From: Oscillospiraceae bacterium
GTDB taxonomy: Bacteria; Bacillota; Clostridia; Oscillospirales; Ruminococcaceae
DNA length: 24,489 nucleotides
Assembly (NCBI GenBank): GCA_018110855.1
Contig: JAGBFZ010000232.1
Coordinates: 1 to 24,489 of the forward strand
Direction of reading: 5' to 3'
Positions 2,962 to 17,550 of this stretch are shown in pieces. Numbering within the stretch: the first letter of the stretch is position 1; each line of letters begins with the position of its first letter. Position numbers and translations under genes: made by a program. The notes under the pieces were generated by a model. It saw nothing but the letters and a program-made list of their open reading frames with translations. It searched no databases and was not told the origin of the DNA.

Positions 2962-4350
2962 TTATACGGTTCCTGTTATCAGCTGACCGTCCTCGTCAAG
3001 GAAGATCTTGACTCTGGGAGTCTCTGCCTCGAACTTCTTCACAGCCTCGTTGATGACGACCTTGGAGCCGGGATATGCGATACCCTTTACCGCAACGTAG
3101 CACTTCTGTATCTCGCTCAGGCTCTCATCAATGCTGGCAATTCTTTTGCGTATCTGCTTTATCTCGTTCTGGCCCGAGAATTTTGTCTTGATGGCAGAGC
3201 CTAACAGCTCCTCCTTGTCCTCCGGAAGCTTTTTCAGCTCCTTGCGCTTGGCAGTGAGGAACTCGGCTATCTGATTGCACCTGTCAATGGTGGATTCAAG
3301 CTCGGAAATTTTCTTTAAGCACTCTGATTTTTCCTGAGCAAGCATTGCATTATCGCCTGCAGTTATTTCGGTGGGAGCATAATTCTTTGTGCCAAGATAT
3401 GTTACCTCGGTGTTTCCGAGAACGGTATATTTTCCGCCGTTTACTCCCTTTGCCGTAAGATCTCCGCCGCAGTAAACGGTGCAGATAACGAAATTCTGAG
3501 CATTAAGGTCGGAATCGGTGGATATCTCCGAATATTCGCAGAACTGGCACGCAATATTTCCGTGTGCGGTGAGCTTGGAGTTTATTGCGCCCTTTTTTAT
3601 GGTAATGGAGCCGCCTGCCGTAAGCTTTGCTCCTGTAACATTGCCGCCTACGGTGATATCCTTGCCGGCGGTAACGGAAAAGCCCTCCATTATCTCGCCC
3701 TTTATGACTACATCGCCCAGAAAGACGATATTGCCCACTGAAGCGTCCACATCGCCGTTGATGGTTACAGCAGGCTCCACGCAGAAGGCTTTGTCCTTAT
3801 AGCACACATGACCGTCAATAGCTGCCACTATGGAAAGTCCGTCATCAGTAAGCCTTGTTCCCTTTCCTATCGTATAGGGCGCAGGCTTGCCGGGAGCTGC
3901 CTTCATCACGACTCCGCGCACGTCCATGCCGTCCGTACCATTCTCGGGGGGAGTTATTACGGCAATGACATCATTTTCACGGATATTTCTGATAAGACCA
4001 AGATTTTTATAATCCACAAAGCCGTTTTCGTCCTCCTGGGGGGCGATGATCTGCTCCTTGTCGAAATTGTATGTAATAACGCCGTTTTTTCCGTCAACGG
4101 GCATATCTGCCTCTGCCGCCTTTATTTCCCTGTCGAAATCCTTGCTGTCGATGAGGGAGCGTATAAGCTCTGTATTGATATTATGCTTTACGCCTTTGAC
4201 GTTAAGCGCCGAGATAACGCTGTCATAGGTGACGTCCTTTCCGCCGTTGCGGGCAGGATAAACAGACATATATGCCACTGAAAAATTCGGAAGAACATTG
4301 ATTATGACCTCTCCGTCAACGGGAGTGCCTCCATTATTCTGTACTGCCAT
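2962..4350 (-). CDS. FapA-like DUF342 polymer-forming protein
   Basis: A 462-residue protein of the DUF342/FapA family. The N-terminal third contains the DUF342 core with GVKHNIN, DMPVDGKNG, ENDVIAVITPPENGTDG and the GKPAP stretch. Residues of about 190-310 form short glycine-rich beta-helix repeats (VTINGDVDASVGNIVF, VTAGKDITVGGNVTGAKL, LTAGGSITIKKGAI). A coiled coil follows (about 335-425), then a small C-terminal beta segment. FapA was named as a flagellar assembly/localisation factor in Vibrio, but many non-motile Firmicutes carry homologues, and no flagellar gene is near this one. It has its own promoter upstream at 4441-4469 and its own terminator. Family is certain from pattern; role here is unknown. 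Confidence 0.87.
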   Translation of the reverse strand: MAVQNNGGTPVDGEVIINVLPNFSVAYMSVYPARNGGKDVTYDSVISALNVKGVKHNINTELIRSLIDSKDFDREIKAAEADMPVDGKNGVITYNFDKEQIIAPQEDENGFVDYKNLGLIRNIRENDVIAVITPPENGTDGMDVRGVVMKAAPGKPAPYTIGKGTRLTDDGLSIVAAIDGHVCYKDKAFCVEPAVTINGDVDASVGNIVFLGDVVIKGEIMEGFSVTAGKDITVGGNVTGAKLTAGGSITIKKGAINSKLTAHGNIACQFCEYSEISTDSDLNAQNFVICTVYCGGDLTAKGVNGGKYTVLGNTEVTYLGTKNYAPTEITAGDNAMLAQEKSECLKKISELESTIDRCNQIAEFLTAKRKELKKLPEDKEELLGSAIKTKFSGQNEIKQIRKRIASIDESLSEIQKCYVAVKGIAYPGSKVVINEAVKKFEAETPRVKIFLDEDGQLITGTV

Positions 4351-10237: not shown

Positions 10238-11251
10238 TCATTCAGAAACAGGCTCCGTCAGCACAGCTTCATCGCTCTTCGGATAAAAAAGCTCGTACTG
10301 CCTTTCCACCCTTTCTCTCACCTTTTCAAGGAAATCCTCGGGACCCGTTATTTTCAGCACGGGTCCGAAGCCAAGAAGCATTATAAGCAGCTCTGTTTCG
10401 TCCCGACTGTCATAGTATATTGAAGCGTGACATCTGCCTGTGTCCAGGTCAAGCTCGCTTCGCTTCTCATAGGAAGCAAACTCCATCATAAAACGCTCCA
10501 CCGCATTCCGCTCGCCGCTTACCTCCACTGTTACGGGCTTTTCGCACCGTCTCCTGCGGAAAAAGTCCTCCATATCGGGCTTTGTATCTATATGCTTTCC
10601 TGTTGGAACGGCTTTTTCTATCCTGCCGATATTGAAAAGATACTCCTCATTTTTGGGGAAAGAAATGCAGTAAACTCTGAATTTGTCATTCTTCCGTGAG
10701 TATTCTATCTTAACGGGAAGGACGTTTTTCGTTATCCGAACGCCCCTGCGTGAGGTCAGCTCAACGGATAATATCTCCCTTTCACGGACTGCTTTCAGAA
10801 CTGCGCCGAATATCTCTCTGTAATGGGGGTCGCTATAATCGTCCCCATCGGTGAAGCGGTCAAATTCACGGAAATGTTCCGCATTATACAGGGGCTTCAC
10901 GTCTTTCAGGCGTTCCGAAAGAGCGGCAATATCCTCGTCTGACAGAAACAGACGGAATTTAGGGTCGGACAGCATGGCTTTGATACGGCTTTTCTGCAAA
11001 TTTGTGATTATCCTCGGGGGAGCCTTTGACAGGACGGAACAAAGCTTACCGTTTTCGCCCCGTTTTAACAGTCCCCATGAGGAGTTTCCCGCCTTATCGG
11101 GAATGAGCTTTTCGGGAATGAAAAGCAGCGAATCCCTGAATGCGGTCTCGGTAACTATCTCCCGAAGCCGTTTTTCGTTCACTTCTCCTTCCGAGAGTAT
11201 TCTTTCGGCGCAGCGGAAATATGCCCCGTATATTTCTGAAAAGAGCTTCAT
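10238..11251 (-). CDS. WYL-domain protein (second of pair)
   Basis: A 337-residue protein. The WYL core is near residues 165-235: a beta-rich stretch ILSVELTSRRGVRITKNVLPVKIEYSRKNDKFRVYCIS followed by YLFNIGRIEKAV, where VYCI takes the place of the classical W-Y-L. A WCX-like C-terminal extension follows (PVTVEVSGERNAVERFMMEF, then LLIMLLGFGPVLKITGPEDFLEKVRE). WYL proteins are ligand-sensing regulators, often bound to nucleic acid, common in DNA/RNA defence and repair loci. AGGAGG sits eight bases before the ATG, partly within the end of the preceding WYL gene. No obvious N-terminal HTH is recognised, so it may work as partner of the first WYL protein. Last gene of the operon. Confidence 0.8.
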   Translation of the reverse strand: MKLFSEIYGAYFRCAERILSEGEVNEKRLREIVTETAFRDSLLFIPEKLIPDKAGNSSWGLLKRGENGKLCSVLSKAPPRIITNLQKSRIKAMLSDPKFRLFLSDEDIAALSERLKDVKPLYNAEHFREFDRFTDGDDYSDPHYREIFGAVLKAVREREILSVELTSRRGVRITKNVLPVKIEYSRKNDKFRVYCISFPKNEEYLFNIGRIEKAVPTGKHIDTKPDMEDFFRRRRCEKPVTVEVSGERNAVERFMMEFASYEKRSELDLDTGRCHASIYYDSRDETELLIMLLGFGPVLKITGPEDFLEKVRERVERQYELFYPKSDEAVLTEPVSE

Positions 11252-11254
11252 CTG

Positions 11255-12496
11255 TCATTCCTCCTCCCTGCGGTATATCCGCTTCATTCGGGCAATATCA
11301 CGATAGAGCTTGTCGGTTATCTGCTTGTTTGTGCTTTCGGCGGAAACAATTCTGCCGATAAAGGTCTTTACCCATGACATCATCTCGTTTACGTCAAAGA
11401 CCTCGGCGGTGTATTCAAATAGGTTTTTGTCGATTTTCCGAATATCTCCGCAGCGCTTTTCCCGCAGGAGCCGCTCGAGTACAAAGCCCTCTGTTTCCTC
11501 GTTTATGCTCAGCACCATTCGGAATGTGCCGCCTGCGCCTTCTCCGCTTCTTTCTCCGAAGGACACGCCGAAGCATTTTTCCTCGCAGCGGCGGAGATTT
11601 TCTGCGTATTCATCATATTCGCTGCAGACGCCAAGGGGACGGACGCTTTTTATGTAGTCAAGCCTGAATGAGTTAAACCGCCTGTATTTCGGGATATACA
11701 TCACCGCATACCGCCGCCCCGTCTGAGACGATGAAAAAATTCTCAGCGGCACGCCCTCTGTTTCGGACGCTTTGCCGCCCCTGCCGAAATTGGTTATCAC
11801 AGCAAGCCTTTTTTCCTCCATTATATGAAGAAGCTCAAGCAGAACACTGTCCTCAAGGGTGTGGACGATGTAATTATGCTTGTTAAGGAAAATGTCGTTT
11901 TTAAGCCCTGCTGTCTTTAAGATGCTGTTTCCGACAACGCCGAATTCGGATGACTCGGAGAAGAATTTTACGGCGTCATCAAATCCCTTATACTCCGAAA
12001 AAAAGCTTTCGGCGGTATCGGAGGAAAGGGTGAATATATCCGCACGTCCCTTTTTTTCGCAGAGAATTATTCCCTCGATAACATATTCCTTGAGCTTGTT
12101 TCTTACGGTCTGCTCGTCAAAAAGCTGACCGTATGAGCTGTTCAGGGCTTCGGTTATATCATGGACATTCATCTTTTGTCCGTCAAGGATATCCATAAGC
12201 ATGAAATGGAGCTTTATATCATTGTCGGTGAAGCTTTTGGAATAATAGGCGCTGTAAAGCGGGTTTTCGTCTATATGTCCGCTGTCAACGGTGATTGACA
12301 CCTGCTTGCCGCGGCTGGTGTTATCGTATCTGAAAATATCTCCGAGCCAGCTTTCCGCACGCCGTTTCTCGTCATCATAGGTTCGGGAGCTTTTTCCCGT
12401 AAACTCGTTTCTCACCTTGAAGCCGTAGATGAAAAAGTCTCTGATATAGTCTCTTGTTTTGTCGAAATTCTTGATAAGCTCCGAAAAGCCGCTCAT
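11255..12496 (-). CDS. WYL-domain transcriptional regulator (first of pair)
   Basis: A 413-residue protein. Residues of about 90-160 look like a winged helix (DIKLHFMLMDILDGQKMNVHDITEALNSSYG, then EQTVRNKLKEYVIEGIILCEKKG). The WYL core follows near 225-290 (LAVITNFGRGGKASETEGVPLRIFSS with YAVMYIPKYRRFNSFRLDYIKSV), then a WCX-like region (FRMVLSINEETEGFVLERLL, FEYTAEVFDVNEMMSWVKTFIGRIVSAES). The gene starts five bases after the HEAT-repeat gene and is three bases before the second WYL gene, so all three are one operon. By layout it is the likely DNA-binding member and controller of the divergent rtcB operon; this is inference from context. Confidence 0.83.
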   Translation of the reverse strand: MSGFSELIKNFDKTRDYIRDFFIYGFKVRNEFTGKSSRTYDDEKRRAESWLGDIFRYDNTSRGKQVSITVDSGHIDENPLYSAYYSKSFTDNDIKLHFMLMDILDGQKMNVHDITEALNSSYGQLFDEQTVRNKLKEYVIEGIILCEKKGRADIFTLSSDTAESFFSEYKGFDDAVKFFSESSEFGVVGNSILKTAGLKNDIFLNKHNYIVHTLEDSVLLELLHIMEEKRLAVITNFGRGGKASETEGVPLRIFSSSQTGRRYAVMYIPKYRRFNSFRLDYIKSVRPLGVCSEYDEYAENLRRCEEKCFGVSFGERSGEGAGGTFRMVLSINEETEGFVLERLLREKRCGDIRKIDKNLFEYTAEVFDVNEMMSWVKTFIGRIVSAESTNKQITDKLYRDIARMKRIYRREEE

Positions 12497-12500
12497 GGTC

Positions 12501-14060
12501 TCACTTCCGTTCTATCTGAAATAATATGTCATTTTTTAACTGTTCGGGGATATTTTCCGCATGGGAAAGTATCTCCTTTACCTCGTCTCTGCGATGACTG
12601 CTGCCTATAAAATAACAGCTTCTTGCAAGTATGGTTCGTCTTACCAAATTGCGGACACATTCATCGGGAAAGCTGTACAGCTTTATAAGCTGCGGCATGG
12701 CTTCCCATATTCCCTGAGACGGACGGCAGAGCAGCGCCGCATATCTGCGGCAAAGGCACTGATTATCCGAGCTTTGTAGAACAGCTTCATAGAGCCGTTC
12801 GGGAGAAACATAGCCATCGCAGGATACAAACGCTTTATATGCTGCCTTTGCCGCTTTTGGACGGGGTTCGGACATCATTTCATAGTAAAGCTTATCATAT
12901 TTGTCCGAAGCAAGCTTGCAGAGGGTGTATACAGCTGCCGCTGCGGTTTTTGCATTCTCGGAGTTTATATATTCAAGGGCGATCTGTTCTCCCTCGGGGC
13001 AGTATGCTTCGCCCAATGCCATTATTGCGCTCGGGGCGGGAAGATGTGCTTTGCAGTATGCCGGGATATCAAAATCGGGCTTTGATTTCCGGAAATGATA
13101 CATCATAAGCTCCCTTACCGGTCGGGTGCTGTCAAGGAGCATTTTCTCCGCTCCCTCCCACAATCCGTATGTATCAATGAGCTTCTGCGCCGCAATATGC
13201 CTTATAACGGGATTTTTGTTTTTGAGATATTCCGTCAGCCTTTCTCGGGGAAGATCAAATTTACGGATATACAATAGCTCTGTGCGGTCTTTTATGACGC
13301 CTTTTTCGTTATTGATAATATACTCTGCACATTCTGATGAAATGAGACTTTCCGAAATGAGGGCTGAGTATATTTTCCGGCGGCGGCTCTCGGAGAAATT
13401 CTCCATTTGCCTGAGTGCGGATATATCAAGCTCCTTTGAGAGCCTTTTTCTCATAAGCTCTGCCGCCTCGGAAAGACTCTTATTTTCCCGTCTGCCGCAG
13501 TGTCTGAGGGCGGGGAGCTCGGCAGAGGCTTCGGCTATGGTCATGATATCCGCATTTTGGACAGCCTGTTTAAAGGCATTTTCCGCCGCCTGACGGACAT
13601 TTGATACCCAGTCATTATACATACAAAGTATGAGAGGAAGAAATCTGGGATACTGCCCCATCTGACTTGTGCAGTTCATTCTGACATAACCGTCACAGTG
13701 GCACATTCCTGCCGCAAGGAGTGACGGGAAATCCTCGCCGCACAGCTCCTTATATCTTCCGTAGCTTTTTTCCTTGATATTACGGTACAAATAAGCGGCG
13801 TCAACTCGCAGCTCATACAGATAATCTGCAAGCTCCCTGCCGTTTTGGTCTCCGATAATATCCGTGCAGGCTTTTGCAACTGTTTTTATTTCCTCGCTGT
13901 CATATTTATAAAGCTCGAAAAGGGCGGGATAGAGGTATGCTTTATGTCCGTATGCAAGATCCTCGGCGTAAAAATGATATTCCTTGTTAAATGTTTGCAA
14001 GGTCTTTTCGGTTCGTTCTTTTTCTGCTGTTCTTCCGAATAATATGTCAAATAGTTTCAT
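12501..14060 (-). CDS. HEAT-repeat alpha-solenoid protein
   Basis: I start at ATG 14060 (MKLFDILFG) because AAGGAGG is eight bases upstream; an in-frame GTG at 14096 would include that ribosome site in the coding region. The product has 519 residues and is almost wholly alpha-helical, with irregular HEAT-like pairs: HCDGYVRMNCTSQMGQYPRFLPLIL, NDWVSNVRQAAENAFKQAV, LKNKNPVIRHIAAQKLIDTYG, STRPVRELMMYHF, NSENAKTAAAAVYTLCKLA, RPKAAKAAYKAF and FPDECVRNLVRRTILARS. No enzyme motif, signal peptide or membrane helix is seen. HEAT solenoids usually bind proteins or nucleic acid. It opens the WYL operon and diverges from rtcB, so a scaffold or sensor role in the RNA-repair locus is inferred. Confidence 0.75.
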   Translation of the reverse strand: MKLFDILFGRTAEKERTEKTLQTFNKEYHFYAEDLAYGHKAYLYPALFELYKYDSEEIKTVAKACTDIIGDQNGRELADYLYELRVDAAYLYRNIKEKSYGRYKELCGEDFPSLLAAGMCHCDGYVRMNCTSQMGQYPRFLPLILCMYNDWVSNVRQAAENAFKQAVQNADIMTIAEASAELPALRHCGRRENKSLSEAAELMRKRLSKELDISALRQMENFSESRRRKIYSALISESLISSECAEYIINNEKGVIKDRTELLYIRKFDLPRERLTEYLKNKNPVIRHIAAQKLIDTYGLWEGAEKMLLDSTRPVRELMMYHFRKSKPDFDIPAYCKAHLPAPSAIMALGEAYCPEGEQIALEYINSENAKTAAAAVYTLCKLASDKYDKLYYEMMSEPRPKAAKAAYKAFVSCDGYVSPERLYEAVLQSSDNQCLCRRYAALLCRPSQGIWEAMPQLIKLYSFPDECVRNLVRRTILARSCYFIGSSHRRDEVKEILSHAENIPEQLKNDILFQIERK

Positions 14061-14086
14061 CCTTCCGTCCTCCTTTGTGTATTTCC

Positions 14087-14115
14087 ATAATATCACATTT
14101 TAATTCGCTTTTCAA
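14087..14115 (-). promoter_or_regulatory. Promoter of the HEAT-WYL-WYL operon
   Basis: On the minus strand TTGAAA (14110-14115), 17 bases, TATTAT (14087-14092), 27 bases before the HEAT gene's ATG. Confidence 0.75.
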
Positions 14116-14146: not shown

Positions 14147-14175
14147 ATGACGGATCGGATCTTTTGGATTATAAT
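14147..14175 (+). promoter_or_regulatory. Promoter of the rtcB - RNA array - DUF2828 operon
   Basis: ATGACG (14147-14152, four matches to TTGACA), 17 bases, TATAAT (14170-14175). Transcription would start near 14182, which excludes the in-frame TTG at 14164 as translation start and gives a leader of about 30 bases to ATG 14212. The poor -35 leaves room for activation. Confidence 0.7.
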
Positions 14176-14211
14176 GGGAACATCGAAAGCGACATGAAAG
14201 GAATGAGCAGA

Positions 14212-15438
14212 ATGTTCGTACATAATGTAAATGACAGATTCCCCATTAAAATATGGGCAGAAAGAGATACCATCGAGGAAAGCTGCCTTGAGCAGGCGGA
14301 GCATATCGCTCAGCTTCCCTTTACATACAAATGGGCGGCTTTGATGCCCGATACTCACACGGGAAAGGGTATGCCCATAGGCGGAGTGATTGCCTGCAAC
14401 GGAGCGGTCATTCCCAATGCGGTGGGAGTGGATATCGGCTGCGGAATGGCATTTCTTCAGACGGATATCCCAGTTTCGCTCCTTCGTGAGACAATTACGG
14501 GCAGCGGAACGCTTTTGCAGGCAATTGTGGGAGATATTCTCCGAAACATTCCCACAGGCTTTGCTCATCACAAGACCCCACAGCCCTCGGCTGTTCTTGA
14601 CAGGGCAAAGGAGGAGCTTTCAAAATTTGAGAGCGACCCCGAGCTTGTTAATAACATTGAGGACGGCTATTTTCAGGTGGGTACTCTGGGCGGCGGCAAC
14701 CACTTCATTGAGCTTCAGGAGGACGAAAAGGGGCTTTGCACCATAATGCTCCACTCGGGCAGCAGAAATTTCGGCTTCAGAGTCTGCGAGCATTTTAACG
14801 GCATTGCGGCGGAGCTTAACGAAAAATGGCACAGCTCTGTTCCTTCGGAGTGGCGGCTCCCATTTCTTCCTGCTGATTCGGCGGAGGGAAAGAGATACCT
14901 TGACTGGATGCAGCTTTCCATGGATTTCGCATATGAAAACCGTGTTGCAATGCTTTGCAGGGTCAGGGAAATTTTCTCGCAATATGTGCTTAAATACACA
15001 GGGCTTGAGGCGCATTTCTCTGATGAGATAAACTGTCACCATAACTATGCCGCTCTTGAGAATCATTTCGGAAAGGACGTTTTCGTTCACCGAAAGGGTG
15101 CTATCAGGGCAGGCGAGGGCGAGATGGGAATTATCCCCGGTTCAATGGGGTCTTACAGCTACATTGTCAGAGGAAAGGGCAATCCCGACAGCTTTATGTC
15201 CTCCTCACACGGTGCGGGCAGGCTTTATTCCCGTACTGCGGCAATGCAGAAATTTGCCGTGGATACGGTTATAAACGACCTCAAGGCGAATAACGTTGTT
15301 CTTGGAAAAAACAAGAAATCGGACGTTGCAGAGGAATCCCGCTTCGCCTACAAGGACATTGACACGGTCATGGCTAATCAGCTTGAGCTTACCGAAGCGG
15401 TCAAAAAGCTGTTTACGGTGGGCGTGGTAAAGGGATAA
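14212..15438 (+). CDS. rtcB: RNA-splicing/repair ligase RtcB
   Basis: A 408-residue RtcB, the same length as the E. coli protein. RtcB joins RNA 3'-phosphate or 2',3'-cyclic phosphate ends to 5'-OH ends, using GTP and manganese. Seen: MPDTHTGKGMPIGG, the metal cysteine in GVDIGCGMAF, LGGGNHFIEL, MLHSGSRNFG, CHHNYA, and the guanylylated histidine in SSSHGAGR. The start at ATG 14212 (MFVHNVNDR) has AAAGGA nine bases upstream; ATGs at 14194 and 14203 are in frame, but the first has no such site and the second has it directly adjacent. The gene is followed seven bases later by the first module of the Y-RNA-like array and then the DUF2828 gene, with no terminator between, so ligase, RNAs and RNA-binding candidate are probably made together. 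Confidence 0.95.
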   Translation: MFVHNVNDRFPIKIWAERDTIEESCLEQAEHIAQLPFTYKWAALMPDTHTGKGMPIGGVIACNGAVIPNAVGVDIGCGMAFLQTDIPVSLLRETITGSGTLLQAIVGDILRNIPTGFAHHKTPQPSAVLDRAKEELSKFESDPELVNNIEDGYFQVGTLGGGNHFIELQEDEKGLCTIMLHSGSRNFGFRVCEHFNGIAAELNEKWHSSVPSEWRLPFLPADSAEGKRYLDWMQLSMDFAYENRVAMLCRVREIFSQYVLKYTGLEAHFSDEINCHHNYAALENHFGKDVFVHRKGAIRAGEGEMGIIPGSMGSYSYIVRGKGNPDSFMSSSHGAGRLYSRTAAMQKFAVDTVINDLKANNVVLGKNKKSDVAEESRFAYKDIDTVMANQLELTEAVKKLFTVGVVKG

Positions 15439-15444
15439 TATTTT

Positions 15445-15542
15445 GCGGTACTAACAGCAAATTTAACATAGAGTGTCACAGGTTCGAATCCTGTCGGGGA
15501 GACCCGTAGCTCAGTCAGGCAGAGCATCGAAAAATGTACCGC
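15445..15542 (+). ncRNA. Y-RNA-like module A with circularly permuted tRNA-like domain
   Basis: Closing stem GCGGTAC (15445-15451) / GTACCGC (15536-15542), perfect 7 bp. The 5' side then has TAA plus CAGCAA as a one-sided bulge, and ATTT (15461-15464) pairs AAAT (15532-15535). Inside are, in this order: T-arm ACAGG-TTCGAAT-CCTGT (15478-15494) with canonical T-loop; acceptor-like stem CGGG-GAGA-CCCG (15495-15506) closed by a GNRA tetraloop; TA; and D-arm GCTC-AGTCAGGCA-GAGC (15509-15525) with the GG expected to meet the T-loop. This is tRNA order opened at the anticodon and closed at the acceptor end, as in the tRNA-mimic domain of bacterial Y RNAs (YrlA). It starts seven bases after rtcB. Structure is read from complementarity; expression is not shown. 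Confidence 0.88.
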
Positions 15543-15555
15543 GACAATTTAATAT

Positions 15556-15609
15556 AAGGCGCACACTGCAATTGTGGAATATGAATTATGGCTGATAATT
15601 TTGCGCCTT
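15556..15609 (+). ncRNA. Y-RNA-like module B (short hairpin)
   Basis: Closing stem AAGGCGCA (15556-15563) / TGCGCCTT (15602-15609), perfect 8 bp. The 5' side carries the variant motif CTGCAA three bases after the 7-bp core, followed by AATT (15570-15573) that can pair with AATT (15597-15600). No T-arm. It shares its stem with module C. Confidence 0.68.
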
Positions 15610-15622
15610 GAAAAATGTTTTA

Positions 15623-15680
15623 AAGGCGCATACAGCAATATCATATTCATCTGTCAAATGAAATGAAAATACAGCGCCTT
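15623..15680 (+). ncRNA. Y-RNA-like module C (short hairpin)
   Basis: Closing stem AAGGCGC (15623-15629) / GCGCCTT (15674-15680), perfect 7 bp, then ATA and CAGCAA on the 5' side. An inner TTCAT/ATGAA pairing (15646-15650 with 15659-15663) is possible. No tRNA-like arm. Because B and C have the same stem, the 3' strand of B can also pair with the 5' strand of C. Confidence 0.7.
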
Positions 15681-15702
15681 GTAAAATATTTAATTTCAAT
15701 TT

Positions 15703-15824
15703 ACGGCTCAGACAGCAAATGTTTGATAAATTTATCTCCAAGGCGCTATGATAAGCTTTCAGCTTACCTTGTGTTCGACTCACAGACCCTGCAAAGGGGA
15801 ATAGCAGAAATAAATATGAGCCGT
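15703..15824 (+). ncRNA. Y-RNA-like module D with T-arm and GNRA-capped stem
   Basis: Closing stem ACGGCTCA (15703-15710) / TGAGCCGT (15817-15824), perfect 8 bp, then CAGCAA on the 5' side. An inner stem GCTAT (15745-15749) / ATAGC (15801-15805) encloses three hairpins: TAAGC-TTTCA-GCTTA (15752-15766 region), T-arm TTGTG-TTCGACT-CACAG (15769-15785, with one T-G pair), and CCCT-GCAA-AGGG (15787-15798) closed by a GNRA tetraloop. T-arm followed by a capped acceptor-like stem is the same order as in module A; the D-arm is missing and a hairpin sits where a long variable arm would be. Confidence 0.8.
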
Positions 15825-15838
15825 GTCAGATCCTTATA

Positions 15839-15908
15839 AAGGCTCAGTCAGCAATACTTCCTATGGGACGCAGTATGCTCATAACGGGCGCTGCGAGGAA
15901 AGAGCCTT
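15839..15908 (+). ncRNA. Y-RNA-like module E (two-stem hairpin)
   Basis: Closing stem AAGGCTC (15839-15845) / GAGCCTT (15902-15908), perfect 7 bp, then AGT and CAGCAA. Inside, TTCCT (15858-15862) pairs AGGAA (15896-15900) and CGCAG (15869-15873) pairs CTGCG (15891-15895). No T-arm. Confidence 0.75.
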
Positions 15909-15923
15909 GCCAGCATTATTTTT

Positions 15924-16005
15924 AAGACAGTCACAGCATATTTTAATTGGTCAATGCAGGTTCAAATCCTGCCCGAAATAACATTATTTCGGTAAATCCT
16001 GTCTT
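15924..16005 (+). ncRNA. Y-RNA-like module F with T-arm
   Basis: Closing stem AAGACAG (15924-15930) / CTGTCTT (15999-16005), perfect 7 bp, then TCA and CAGCAT. Inside, T-arm GCAGG-TTCAAAT-CCTGC (15956-15972) with canonical T-loop, followed at once by a 9-bp hairpin CCGAAATAA/TTATTTCGG (15973-15992) in the acceptor position, preceded by a GGTCAAT variable-like segment. No D-arm. Its 3' end lies 20 bases before the DUF2828 start and is close to that gene's ribosome site. Confidence 0.8.
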
Positions 16006-16025
16006 GTAAAAAAGGAGTGTTTTTT

Positions 16026-17498
16026 ATGTTTGATTTTCTGAATGCTTTGAAAGCAAAGGCAAACGAGACCTTCACAGAAAACGGCGGAAGGGCGTACATA
16101 TCCACCCATTCCGACTGCCTTGACCTGTTTTTCAAGGCGGGGGCAATGAGAAATGCCTCCGAGGAGGAAATAGGCGCGGCTGTTTTAAGAGCCTATGCCG
16201 AGGACCCCAACAAGGCAATGAAGATAATCTTCTTTGCAAGGGACGTAAGAGGAGGACTTGGCGAAAGACGCTTTTTCCGCATTGCGGTGAAGCACCTGGC
16301 ATTTTCCGCTCCCGAAAGCGTTATAAAGAATATTCCCCTTTTTGCGGAATACGGAAGATTTGACGATCTCTGCACTCTTCTCGGCACTCCCTGCGAAAAT
16401 GAGGCTGCTGCTGCATTAAAGGAGCAGCTTGATAAGGACATCGCAGGCATGGCAGAGGGAAAGCCTGTTTCTCTTCTTGCTAAGTGGCTTCCCTCTGTGA
16501 ACGCTTCCTCAAAGGAAACGGTGAAAAGCGCCAAAAAGCTCTGCGATATCTTCTGCATGAGCGAAAAAAACTACCGTCAGACCCTTTCCGCACTGAGAAA
16601 ATACACCGACATCACCGAGAACCGTCTCAGAGTCATGGATTACTCCTTTGACTACGGCAAGCAGCCCTCGGGAGCAATGTTCAAGTACAAAAAAGCGTTT
16701 ATACGCAACGACAAGGAGCGGTACTGCGAATTTCTGAAAAACGTCAGCGAGGGAAAGGCTGTTCTTCATGCTGACACGCTTTATCCTTACGAAATAGTTC
16801 GCAGAGTGCTTGCAGAAATGCCCTCAAAAGAAGAAAGAAAGGCTCTTGACGTTACATGGAACAGTCTGCCCGACCATGGTGTTTCAACCGATAATGCCAT
16901 TGCGGTAATTGACGGCTCGGGTTCCATGACTTGGGGAAATAACCCCCGTCCCATTGACGCAGCGCTTTCCCTCGGAATTTACTTTGCGGAGCATAACAAG
17001 GGTGCATTCGGCGGACATTTCATCACATTTTCAAACAAGCCCCGTCTTGTGAAGGTAAAGGGAAGCGACATTTACGAAAAGGCAAATTACTGCGCTTCCT
17101 ATAACGAGTGCGCCAACACCGATCTTGAAGCAGTTTTCCTTCTTATACTGGGCACTGCCGTTGCAAAAAGAGTTCCGAAGAGCGATATGCCCAAAAGGCT
17201 GTACATTCTTTCGGATATGCAGTTTGACTGCTGTGTTGAGGGCGGAAACAGCCTGCCCCTTTTTGAGGCAATGAAGAAAAAATATGCCCGCTATGGCTAT
17301 GAGCTTCCCGAAATTGTTTTCTGGAATCTTTGCAGCAGAGGGGCTGCTATTCCCGTAACGCTTTCGCAGACAGGAGCGGCTCTTGTTTCGGGTTTCTCCC
17401 CTGCCATATTCGATATGGTGAAGTCGGGCAGCATTTCTCCCGAGGCTGTGATGGAAGAGACTATTGGCAGAGAGAGATACAAGGCTGTTGCAGCGTGA
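16026..17498 (+). CDS. DUF2828-family protein (TROVE-like repeats plus vWA domain), candidate Ro60-type RNA-binding protein
   Basis: Start at ATG 16026 (MFDFLNALK), with AAGGAG eight bases upstream; the earlier in-frame GTG at 16017 is too close to that site. The product has 490 residues. The N-terminal alpha-helical part (about 1-285) has the DUF2828 pattern ENGGRAYIST, CLDLFFKAGA, AEDPNKAMKIIFFARDVRGGLGERRFFRIA and IPLFAEYGRFDDLCTLLG, comparable to HEAT-like TROVE modules. The C-terminal vWA domain has a complete MIDAS motif AVIDGSGSMTW (near 296-300) and LYILSDMQFD. Ro60/Rsr proteins share this two-part design and bind Y RNAs. Here the gene follows the Y-RNA-like array and rtcB, so it is the natural binding partner, by inference. 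No membrane or signal segment. It is followed by a strong terminator. Confidence 0.85.
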   Translation: MFDFLNALKAKANETFTENGGRAYISTHSDCLDLFFKAGAMRNASEEEIGAAVLRAYAEDPNKAMKIIFFARDVRGGLGERRFFRIAVKHLAFSAPESVIKNIPLFAEYGRFDDLCTLLGTPCENEAAAALKEQLDKDIAGMAEGKPVSLLAKWLPSVNASSKETVKSAKKLCDIFCMSEKNYRQTLSALRKYTDITENRLRVMDYSFDYGKQPSGAMFKYKKAFIRNDKERYCEFLKNVSEGKAVLHADTLYPYEIVRRVLAEMPSKEERKALDVTWNSLPDHGVSTDNAIAVIDGSGSMTWGNNPRPIDAALSLGIYFAEHNKGAFGGHFITFSNKPRLVKVKGSDIYEKANYCASYNECANTDLEAVFLLILGTAVAKRVPKSDMPKRLYILSDMQFDCCVEGGNSLPLFEAMKKKYARYGYELPEIVFWNLCSRGAAIPVTLSQTGAALVSGFSPAIFDMVKSGSISPEAVMEETIGRERYKAVAA

Positions 17499-17512: not shown

Positions 17513-17550
17513 ATCCGCCGTTTGTCTGATCTGGCAAACGGCGGATTTTT
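17513..17550. terminator. Strong intrinsic terminator after the DUF2828 gene
   Basis: Perfect 12-bp stem ATCCGCCGTTTG (17513-17524) / CAAACGGCGGAT (17535-17546), followed by TTTT on the plus strand. On the minus strand ATTTTC follows, so it may also end the convergent gh16 transcript. Confidence 0.9.

What the first reader, a model, noticed from the sequence alone, without database searches (positions are those of the whole stretch)
15439..16016. Tandem array of six Y-RNA-like modules between rtcB and a DUF2828 gene
The 578 bases have no coding frame of quality yet are fully organised. Six consecutive modules (15445-15542, 15556-15609, 15623-15680, 15703-15824, 15839-15908, 15924-16005) are each closed by a perfect 7-8 bp stem and separated by short A/T-rich or C/A linkers. 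Each has three bases then C(A/T)GCA after the 5' stem strand. Three carry T-arms. Bacterial Y RNAs near Ro60 and rtcB are established; usually one or two are found. An array of six, mixing tRNA-mimic and plain hairpin forms, beside a DUF2828 protein rather than canonical Ro60, looks undescribed.
Basis: partly seen in the sequence, partly recalled or inferred. Interest (0 to 1): 0.95.

Follow-up and report, generated by a model that had tools for sequence, protein, structure and literature searches.

The report
Ro-linked array of Y-RNA-like RNAs
Beside a gene for a protein predicted to fold like the Ro60 RNA-binding ring, this bacterium's DNA carries six units with the same short stem 'handle' but different, partly tRNA-like insides; matching arrays sit beside relatives of that gene in dozens of other bacterial and phage sequences, and they likely make a set of interchangeable small RNAs that would plug the ring into RNA repair or quality control.

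The parts
15445..15542 (+). Module 1: handle GCGGTAC/GTACCGC + TAA + CAGCA; YrlA-type payload: T-arm 15478-15494, acceptor-mimic hairpin 15495-15506, D-arm 15509-15525 (circularly permuted tRNA-like order)
   Evidence: YrlA E 1.2e-7; fold; 3 orthologs
15556..15609 (+). Module 2: handle AAGGCGC/GCGCCTT + ACA + CTGCA; short payload; lost in the relative L002
15623..15680 (+). Module 3: handle AAGGCGC/GCGCCTT + ATA + CAGCA; short hairpin payload
15703..15824 (+). Module 4: handle ACGGCTC/GAGCCGT + AGA + CAGCA; payload of three hairpins (third arm, T-arm, acceptor mimic) closed by GCTAT/ATAGC; reads as a tRNA opened at the D loop (inference)
15839..15908 (+). Module 5: handle AAGGCTC/GAGCCTT + AGT + CAGCA; hairpin payload conserved in two relatives
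15924..16005 (+). Module 6: handle AAGACAG/CTGTCTT + TCA + CAGCA; T-arm and a hairpin in place of the acceptor; ends 20 nt before the DUF2828 start codon
16012..16017 (+). AAGGAG, likely ribosome-binding site of the DUF2828 gene
   Evidence: sequence
16026..17498 (+). DUF2828 + DUF7788 (vWA) protein, 490 aa, predicted Ro60 fold
14164..15438 (+). rtcB RNA ligase gene, ends 6 nt before module 1
11255..12496 (-). WYL protein 1; relatives in 24 of 37 loci (WYL match E 2.4e-4, just under the Pfam cut-off)
10238..11251 (-). WYL-type protein 2 (weak WCX match); relatives in 22 of 37 loci
17513..17546 (+). Terminator-like hairpin (14 pairs, T-run) after the DUF2828 gene; none found inside the array

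Best explanation
The array is a family of structured RNA modules with one common handle, placed next to a protein predicted to be a Ro60-type ring, and it likely gives rise to several Y-RNA-like small RNAs that this ring would bind by the handle. Shown by sequence: the handle (7-bp stem, NNA, CAGCAA, then G after the 3' strand), its covariation, its recurrence beside DUF2828 genes, and the diversity of payloads. Predicted: the Ro60 fold. Inferred: the locus is transcribed with rtcB and the DUF2828 gene and cut into single modules; the ring holds each RNA by its handle on the outside, as Ro60 holds Y RNAs; the payload then gates the ring or tethers a partner. T-arm payloads would draw in tRNA-handling enzymes or stand in for damaged tRNA, and short hairpins may serve as plain gates. 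With RtcB, and in some relatives RlaP, in the neighbourhood, the ring and its RNAs would sort or guard damaged RNA for repair or decay, as YrlA and Rsr do with PNPase.
For: Module excess: 117 upstream hits in 37 cellular loci against 2.7 expected from shuffles and 4 antisense; 158 in 80 viral loci against 7.7 and 5 antisense. Blind-partner test: cellular 94 of 105 (partners swapped: mean 19.4, maximum 29 in 200 rounds; shuffled 4.2), 93 of 94 partners followed by G; viral 118 of 165 (17.8, maximum 28). Pair types per stem position over 94 modules, e.g. pair 4 GC 59/AT 34, pair 5 CG 59/TA 35, pair 6 AT 55/GC 26/TA 10. In the window's own genome, 0 of 30 dispersed handle-like halves examined (of 86 hits) close a stem. 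T-arms: 21 of 112 cellular payloads against 0.22 in shuffles. Ro60 fold. Module 1 matches YrlA. RtcB in 19 and WYL1 in 24 of 37 loci; RlaP, E 1.5e-54, in the one of three cluster members that I scanned. Trans-acting position: in phages 20 of 161 and 12 of 32 modules lie downstream of the gene, some between tRNA genes; in G132 the array lies upstream of rtcB. The vertebrate Ro60 site also has a seven-base-pair helix and a three-nucleotide bulge (PMC4726728, passages).
Against: No transcript, processing or binding data. In bacterial loci 113 of 114 modules are upstream of the gene, and in 18 of 35 loci the last module ends 5-31 nt before the start codon, which also suits a cis-acting leader. 26 of 80 viral and 5 of 16 named records have no module by my criteria. 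Three orthologs alone give modest covariation: module 4 is reached by 19 of 500 shuffles, module 1 by 54 of 500 with one unpaired cell. DUF2828 shows no sequence match to TROVE, and hhalign links only the vWA half (probability 69.8, two TROVE sequences). Six TROVE loci of the phylum lack this handle. Most payloads have no T-arm. In the Listeria phage paper the abundant RNAs map elsewhere.
Confidence: 0.68

Rival explanations
1. The array is mainly a cis-acting leader: the Ro-like protein binds its own messenger through repeated handles and so blocks or stabilises it, an autoregulatory buffer, and no free small RNAs matter.
For: 113 of 114 modules in bacterial loci are upstream; the last module ends 5-31 nt before the start in 18 of 35 loci, at 5-6 nt in three; no terminator inside the array.
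Against: In phages modules also lie downstream of the gene or between tRNA genes; in G132 the array is upstream of rtcB. Conserved tRNA-like payloads have no obvious use in a mere operator. The last module could still do both.
Confidence: 0.17
2. The modules are decoys: tRNA-like payloads on a protein ring soak up tRNA-cutting toxins or phage or host nucleases, while RtcB mends what was cut.
For: T-arm payloads well above chance; five ARAGORN tRNA calls (Met, three Ile, Ser) lie inside modules; RtcB, RlaP and tRNA genes nearby. PMC7790460 (passages) proposes YrlA as a possible competitive inhibitor of the anticodon nuclease.
Against: Most payloads are short hairpins without tRNA features (61 of 112 cellular). 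No payload matches E. coli rRNA at 28 bits or more, and none holds the rRNA toxin-target words that I tried. Module 1 lacks an anticodon arm. No PADLOC match.
Confidence: 0.1
3. The array is a mobile or selfish repeat (integron-like or MITE-like inverted repeats) that happens to sit by the gene.
For: Copy number and payload vary between relatives; L003 module 6 holds a nested inverted repeat.
Against: Stem sequences differ between modules yet stay paired; strand fixed with the gene; modules kept in the same order in close relatives; no closing stem at 30 of 30 dispersed look-alikes examined.
Confidence: 0.02

Closest known systems
Bacterial Y RNA YrlA (Rfam RF02553) with Rsr and PNPase (RYPER)
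   Same: Ends paired into a basal stem beside a Ro-type gene; module 1 has the same permuted tRNA-like domain; often beside rtcB (PMC8394870, PMC7790460, passages).
   Different: Handle sequence differs (CAGCAA box; not found at six TROVE loci); many modules per locus; most payloads short or not YrlA-like; below Rfam's threshold.
Ro60 / Rsr (TROVE) proteins
   Same: Predicted ring of helical repeats plus vWA with DxSxS; best structural matches are all Ro60/TROVE.
   Different: No sequence match to the TROVE model; own families DUF2828/DUF7788 and phrog_850.
Mycobacteriophage 'Ro-like RNA binding protein' loci
   Same: Same protein family (38% identity over 100% of the query in Finnry) and the same handle: three modules downstream of the Finnry gene, the middle one permuted tRNA-like.
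   Different: That phage Y RNAs are known is stated in PMC12282133, citing Chen 2014 (passage); I could not read which RNAs were meant. The handle family and arrays are not annotated in the records fetched.
Salmonella rsr-yrlBA-rtcBA RNA repair operon
   Same: Ro-type protein, Y RNAs and RtcB together.
   Different: Two WYL-type proteins here instead of RtcR; six modules between rtcB and the Ro-like gene; no RtcA seen.

Membership tests
Ro60/TROVE protein | Ring of helical repeats plus vWA domain | tested here: met
Ro60/TROVE protein | MIDAS-type DxSxS in the vWA domain | tested here: met
   D296, S298, S300 invariant in the 29-sequence alignment A1. The motif's meaning is recalled.
Ro60/TROVE protein | Match to Pfam TROVE PF05731 | tested here: not met
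   Pfam scan gives DUF2828 and DUF7788 only; no TROVE match in the own genome. So it is filed as Ro60-like, not as a TROVE member.
Ro60/TROVE protein | Binds Y RNA | not testable with these tools
   Needs biochemistry.
Bacterial Y RNA (YrlA) | Score at or above Rfam's gathering cut-off | tested here: not met
   Module 1: 41.3 bits against 69; no YrlA match at gathering in the window or in 26 related loci. Two modules are instead called tRNA there (L153, L011).
Bacterial Y RNA (YrlA) | 5' and 3' ends paired into a basal stem | tested here: met
Bacterial Y RNA (YrlA) | Permuted tRNA-like domain (T-arm, closed acceptor, D-arm) | tested here: met
   Met for module 1 and several relatives; not for the short modules.
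Bacterial Y RNA (YrlA) | Length 90-150 nt (as given in PMC8394870) | tested here: inconclusive
   Modules 1 and 4 are 98 and 122 nt; the other four are 54-82 nt.
Bacterial Y RNA (YrlA) | Encoded beside a Ro-type gene | tested here: met
Bacterial Y RNA (YrlA) | Expressed, stable and bound by Ro/Rsr | not testable with these tools
   No RNA data at hand.
Vertebrate Ro60-binding stem | Seven-bp helix, single bulged C, three-nt bulge on the other strand (PMC4726728) | tested here: inconclusive
   Seven pairs and three unpaired bases are present; no bulged C is evident.

The most novel reading that the evidence does not exclude
A handle-and-payload RNA system: one Ro-type ring served by a cassette of many different RNAs that share only a short binding handle, with that same handle grafted at different points of a tRNA-like fold (anticodon arm, D loop, acceptor stem) so that the ring shows different faces of a tRNA. 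It is spread through chromosomes and phages as a widespread RNA family that Rfam does not hold.
Probability: 0.5. Interest if true: 0.92.

Novelty: new variant of a known kind. Interest (0 to 1): 0.85.

Why it matters
If true, it turns the bacterial Ro/Y-RNA pair from one ring with one or two RNAs into a modular platform with a whole rack of adaptors, gives a function hypothesis to DUF2828 (681 phage records hold a match), and supplies a simple handle rule by which hundreds of unannotated structured RNAs can be found. It makes the old question of what Y RNA payloads do directly testable, because nature has swapped the payload and kept the handle.

Tried and rejected
T-box, riboswitch or other known RNA: apart from YrlA, nothing convincing in the array in Rfam at E up to 5. 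Chance palindromes: rejected by shuffles, swapped partners and dispersed look-alikes. Protein-coding: rejected. rRNA mimicry: 0 of 276 payloads reach 28 bits against E. coli rrnB; 9 reach 26 bits, of which 8 are the T-arm of the tRNA-Glu inside that operon and 1 is 23S; none of five recalled motif words occurs. Listeria phage cka15: I hoped that the abundant RNAs of PMC12282133 were the modules; they are not, CKA15_059-061 lie at L155:2156-2466 and the modules at 3302-3564. MAFFT of nine permuted modules misaligned the handles, so I counted pairs only on close orthologs; a parsing script failed. A profile search of PDB sequences found no Ro60. The tRNA neighbourhood is a trait of DUF2828 phage loci rather than of modules: 36 of 46 loci with listed modules against 22 of 34 others have tRNA genes; 8 of those 34 hold only modules already listed from another locus. 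Literature: searches listed no description of such arrays. Chen 2014, Sim and Wolin 2018 and 2020 and Wang 2018 are not held (ids recalled, also not held); Burroughs and Aravind 2016 was not found. So an earlier description cannot be excluded. Integron attC sites and CRISPR repeats were set aside from recall only.

Full report
What is there. Each is closed by seven perfect pairs, then three bases, then CAGCA (module 2: CTGCA), a payload, the 3' strand and a G. Of 3000 dinucleotide shuffles of 15439-16016, 2837 gave none, 160 one and 3 two modules; 10 other hits in the window lack the following G. The simple promoter scan is noisy: 13 sites against 4.6 expected, three of them on the + strand just before or inside the array (starting 15412, 15658, 15723), so internal promoters are not excluded. 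No terminator-like site lies in the array; a 14-pair one follows the DUF2828 gene at 17513-17546, though the number of terminator sites in the stretch (4) is what shuffles give.

The handle is a conserved family. Upstream of the gene, cellular loci hold 117 hits against 2.7 from shuffles and 4 on the opposite strand; viral loci 158 against 7.7 and 5, plus 33 downstream. With stricter criteria (following G, consensus), 35 of 37 cellular loci have at least one module, 32 at least two, 23 at least three, at most seven; viral 54 of 80; named 11 of 16. The two cellular loci without are L051 and L064; L064's gene is only a fragment.

A test blind to pairing. The finder selects paired stems, so covariation on its output would be circular. 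I therefore chose 5' halves by a consensus of the 5' side alone and asked whether a partner exists: cellular 94 of 105, against a mean of 19.4 (maximum 29 of 200 rounds) with downstream sequences swapped among halves and 4.2 with shuffled ones; 93 of 94 partners are followed by G, which was not asked for. Viral: 118 of 165, against 17.8 and 6.8. Named: 10 of 10, against 1.5 and 0.6. Away from the gene or on the minus strand, 1 of 23 cellular halves but 34 of 61 viral ones have partners, so phages seem to hold more modules farther off. The consensus itself was learned from modules found with the finder, which is a residual weakness. In the 94 cellular modules every stem position has at least two Watson-Crick types, for example GC 59/AT 34 and CG 59/TA 35. 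In the window's own genome a looser 5' pattern has 86 hits; of the 30 loci that I could examine none closes a stem with the handle consensus.

The payloads. Among 276 non-redundant payloads, 226 groups form at E 1e-4 and 198 are singletons. T-arms occur in 21 of 112 cellular, 22 of 132 viral and 6 of 32 named payloads, against 0.22, 0.24 and 0.04 in shuffles. Module 1 has T-arm, closed acceptor and D-arm in permuted order, as in YrlA, so that the handle stands where the anticodon arm would be. Module 4 has three hairpins inside GCTAT/ATAGC and reads best as a tRNA opened in the D loop; three of its pairs change on both sides among three relatives, with all cells paired (32-42% when slid), though 19 of 500 shuffles reach that count. 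In L011 (4871-4965) and L153 (3400-3494) a collinear tRNA body sits in the handle, which takes the place of much of the acceptor stem; ARAGORN calls tRNAs inside modules of L011, L071, L074, L076 and L114. These grafting points are my reading of the folds. Close relatives keep the order of the array, but one lacks module 2 and one has a long insertion in module 6.

Neighbours. In 37 cellular loci relatives of the two WYL-type proteins occur in 24 and 22, RtcB in 19 (upstream or downstream of the gene), and an RlaP-type RNA-repair protein in 3, of which I scanned one. In phages RtcB and RNA ligase genes occur nearby in A511, an RNA ligase in CBB, and tRNA genes at 11 of 14 named phage loci. In G132 the array lies upstream of an rtcB that precedes the DUF2828 gene. 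DUF2828 is patchy: 13 of 148 family genomes, none in the one same-genus genome sampled, 7 of 398 in the phylum sample.

Comparison. At six TROVE loci of the phylum this handle is absent; three have YrlA-like matches with another basal stem. Rfam's YrlA model does not reach its cut-off in the window or in 26 related loci. The vertebrate Ro60 site is a seven-base-pair helix with a bulged C and a three-nucleotide bulge (PMC4726728, passages); the seven pairs and three bases recall it, the bulged C does not show. Bacterial Y RNA tethers Rsr to PNPase (PMC8394870, PMC7790460, passages), which is the model that I extend.

Mechanism and its grades. Shown: modules, covariation, recurrence, neighbours. 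Predicted: Ro60 fold. Inferred: co-transcription, cutting into single RNAs, handle binding, payload as gate or tether, role in RNA repair or quality control. The strongest rival is a cis-acting leader, since bacterial arrays nearly always abut the start of the gene (113 of 114 modules upstream; 18 of 35 loci with 5-31 nt). Against it stand the phage modules downstream of or away from the gene and the G132 order. Both may be true of the last module.

Noticed in passing
window 12501-14096 (-): HEAT-repeat gene between WYL1 and rtcB; among the loci only L002 shares it (71%), so it is probably a recent insertion into the operon.
   Followed up: partly
L145:4452-5112 and L155:2156-2466: Noncoding stretch of Listeria phages A511 and cka15 with a sigma-A-like promoter (my reading); in cka15 it holds CKA15_059-061, reported as very abundant transcripts that are probably not coding (PMC12282133, passages). 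It has no handle module: a different RNA of unknown kind.
   Followed up: partly
L003:4802-4980: Module 6 of this relative carries a long nested inverted repeat absent from the window and L002, as if an element had inserted into the payload without breaking the handle.
   Followed up: no
L198:5059-5193, L200:3337-3401, L202:5272-5386: YrlA-like RNAs beside TROVE genes share a TACTTCG(A/G)CTGTTAA-type box in place of CAGCA: each Ro lineage may have its own handle.
   Followed up: partly
L130, L134, L135, L139, L141, L144, L156: Loci that miss my strict criteria show a variant handle (such as TAAGATG + AGG or TTAGATG + ATT before CAGCA) on both sides of the gene.
   Followed up: no
L009:6848-7642: RlaP, an RNA-repair nucleotidyltransferase (Pfam), downstream of DUF2828 in three loci; in L009, L010 and L019 tRNA genes lie downstream of DUF2828, in L010 and L019 between it and a distant rtcB.
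   Followed up: partly
L145:6001-7521 / CKA15_055: The Listeria phage DUF2828 protein was detected by mass spectrometry in purified phage particles (PMC12282133, passages; the authors are cautious): a Ro-like protein might be packaged or injected.
   Followed up: no
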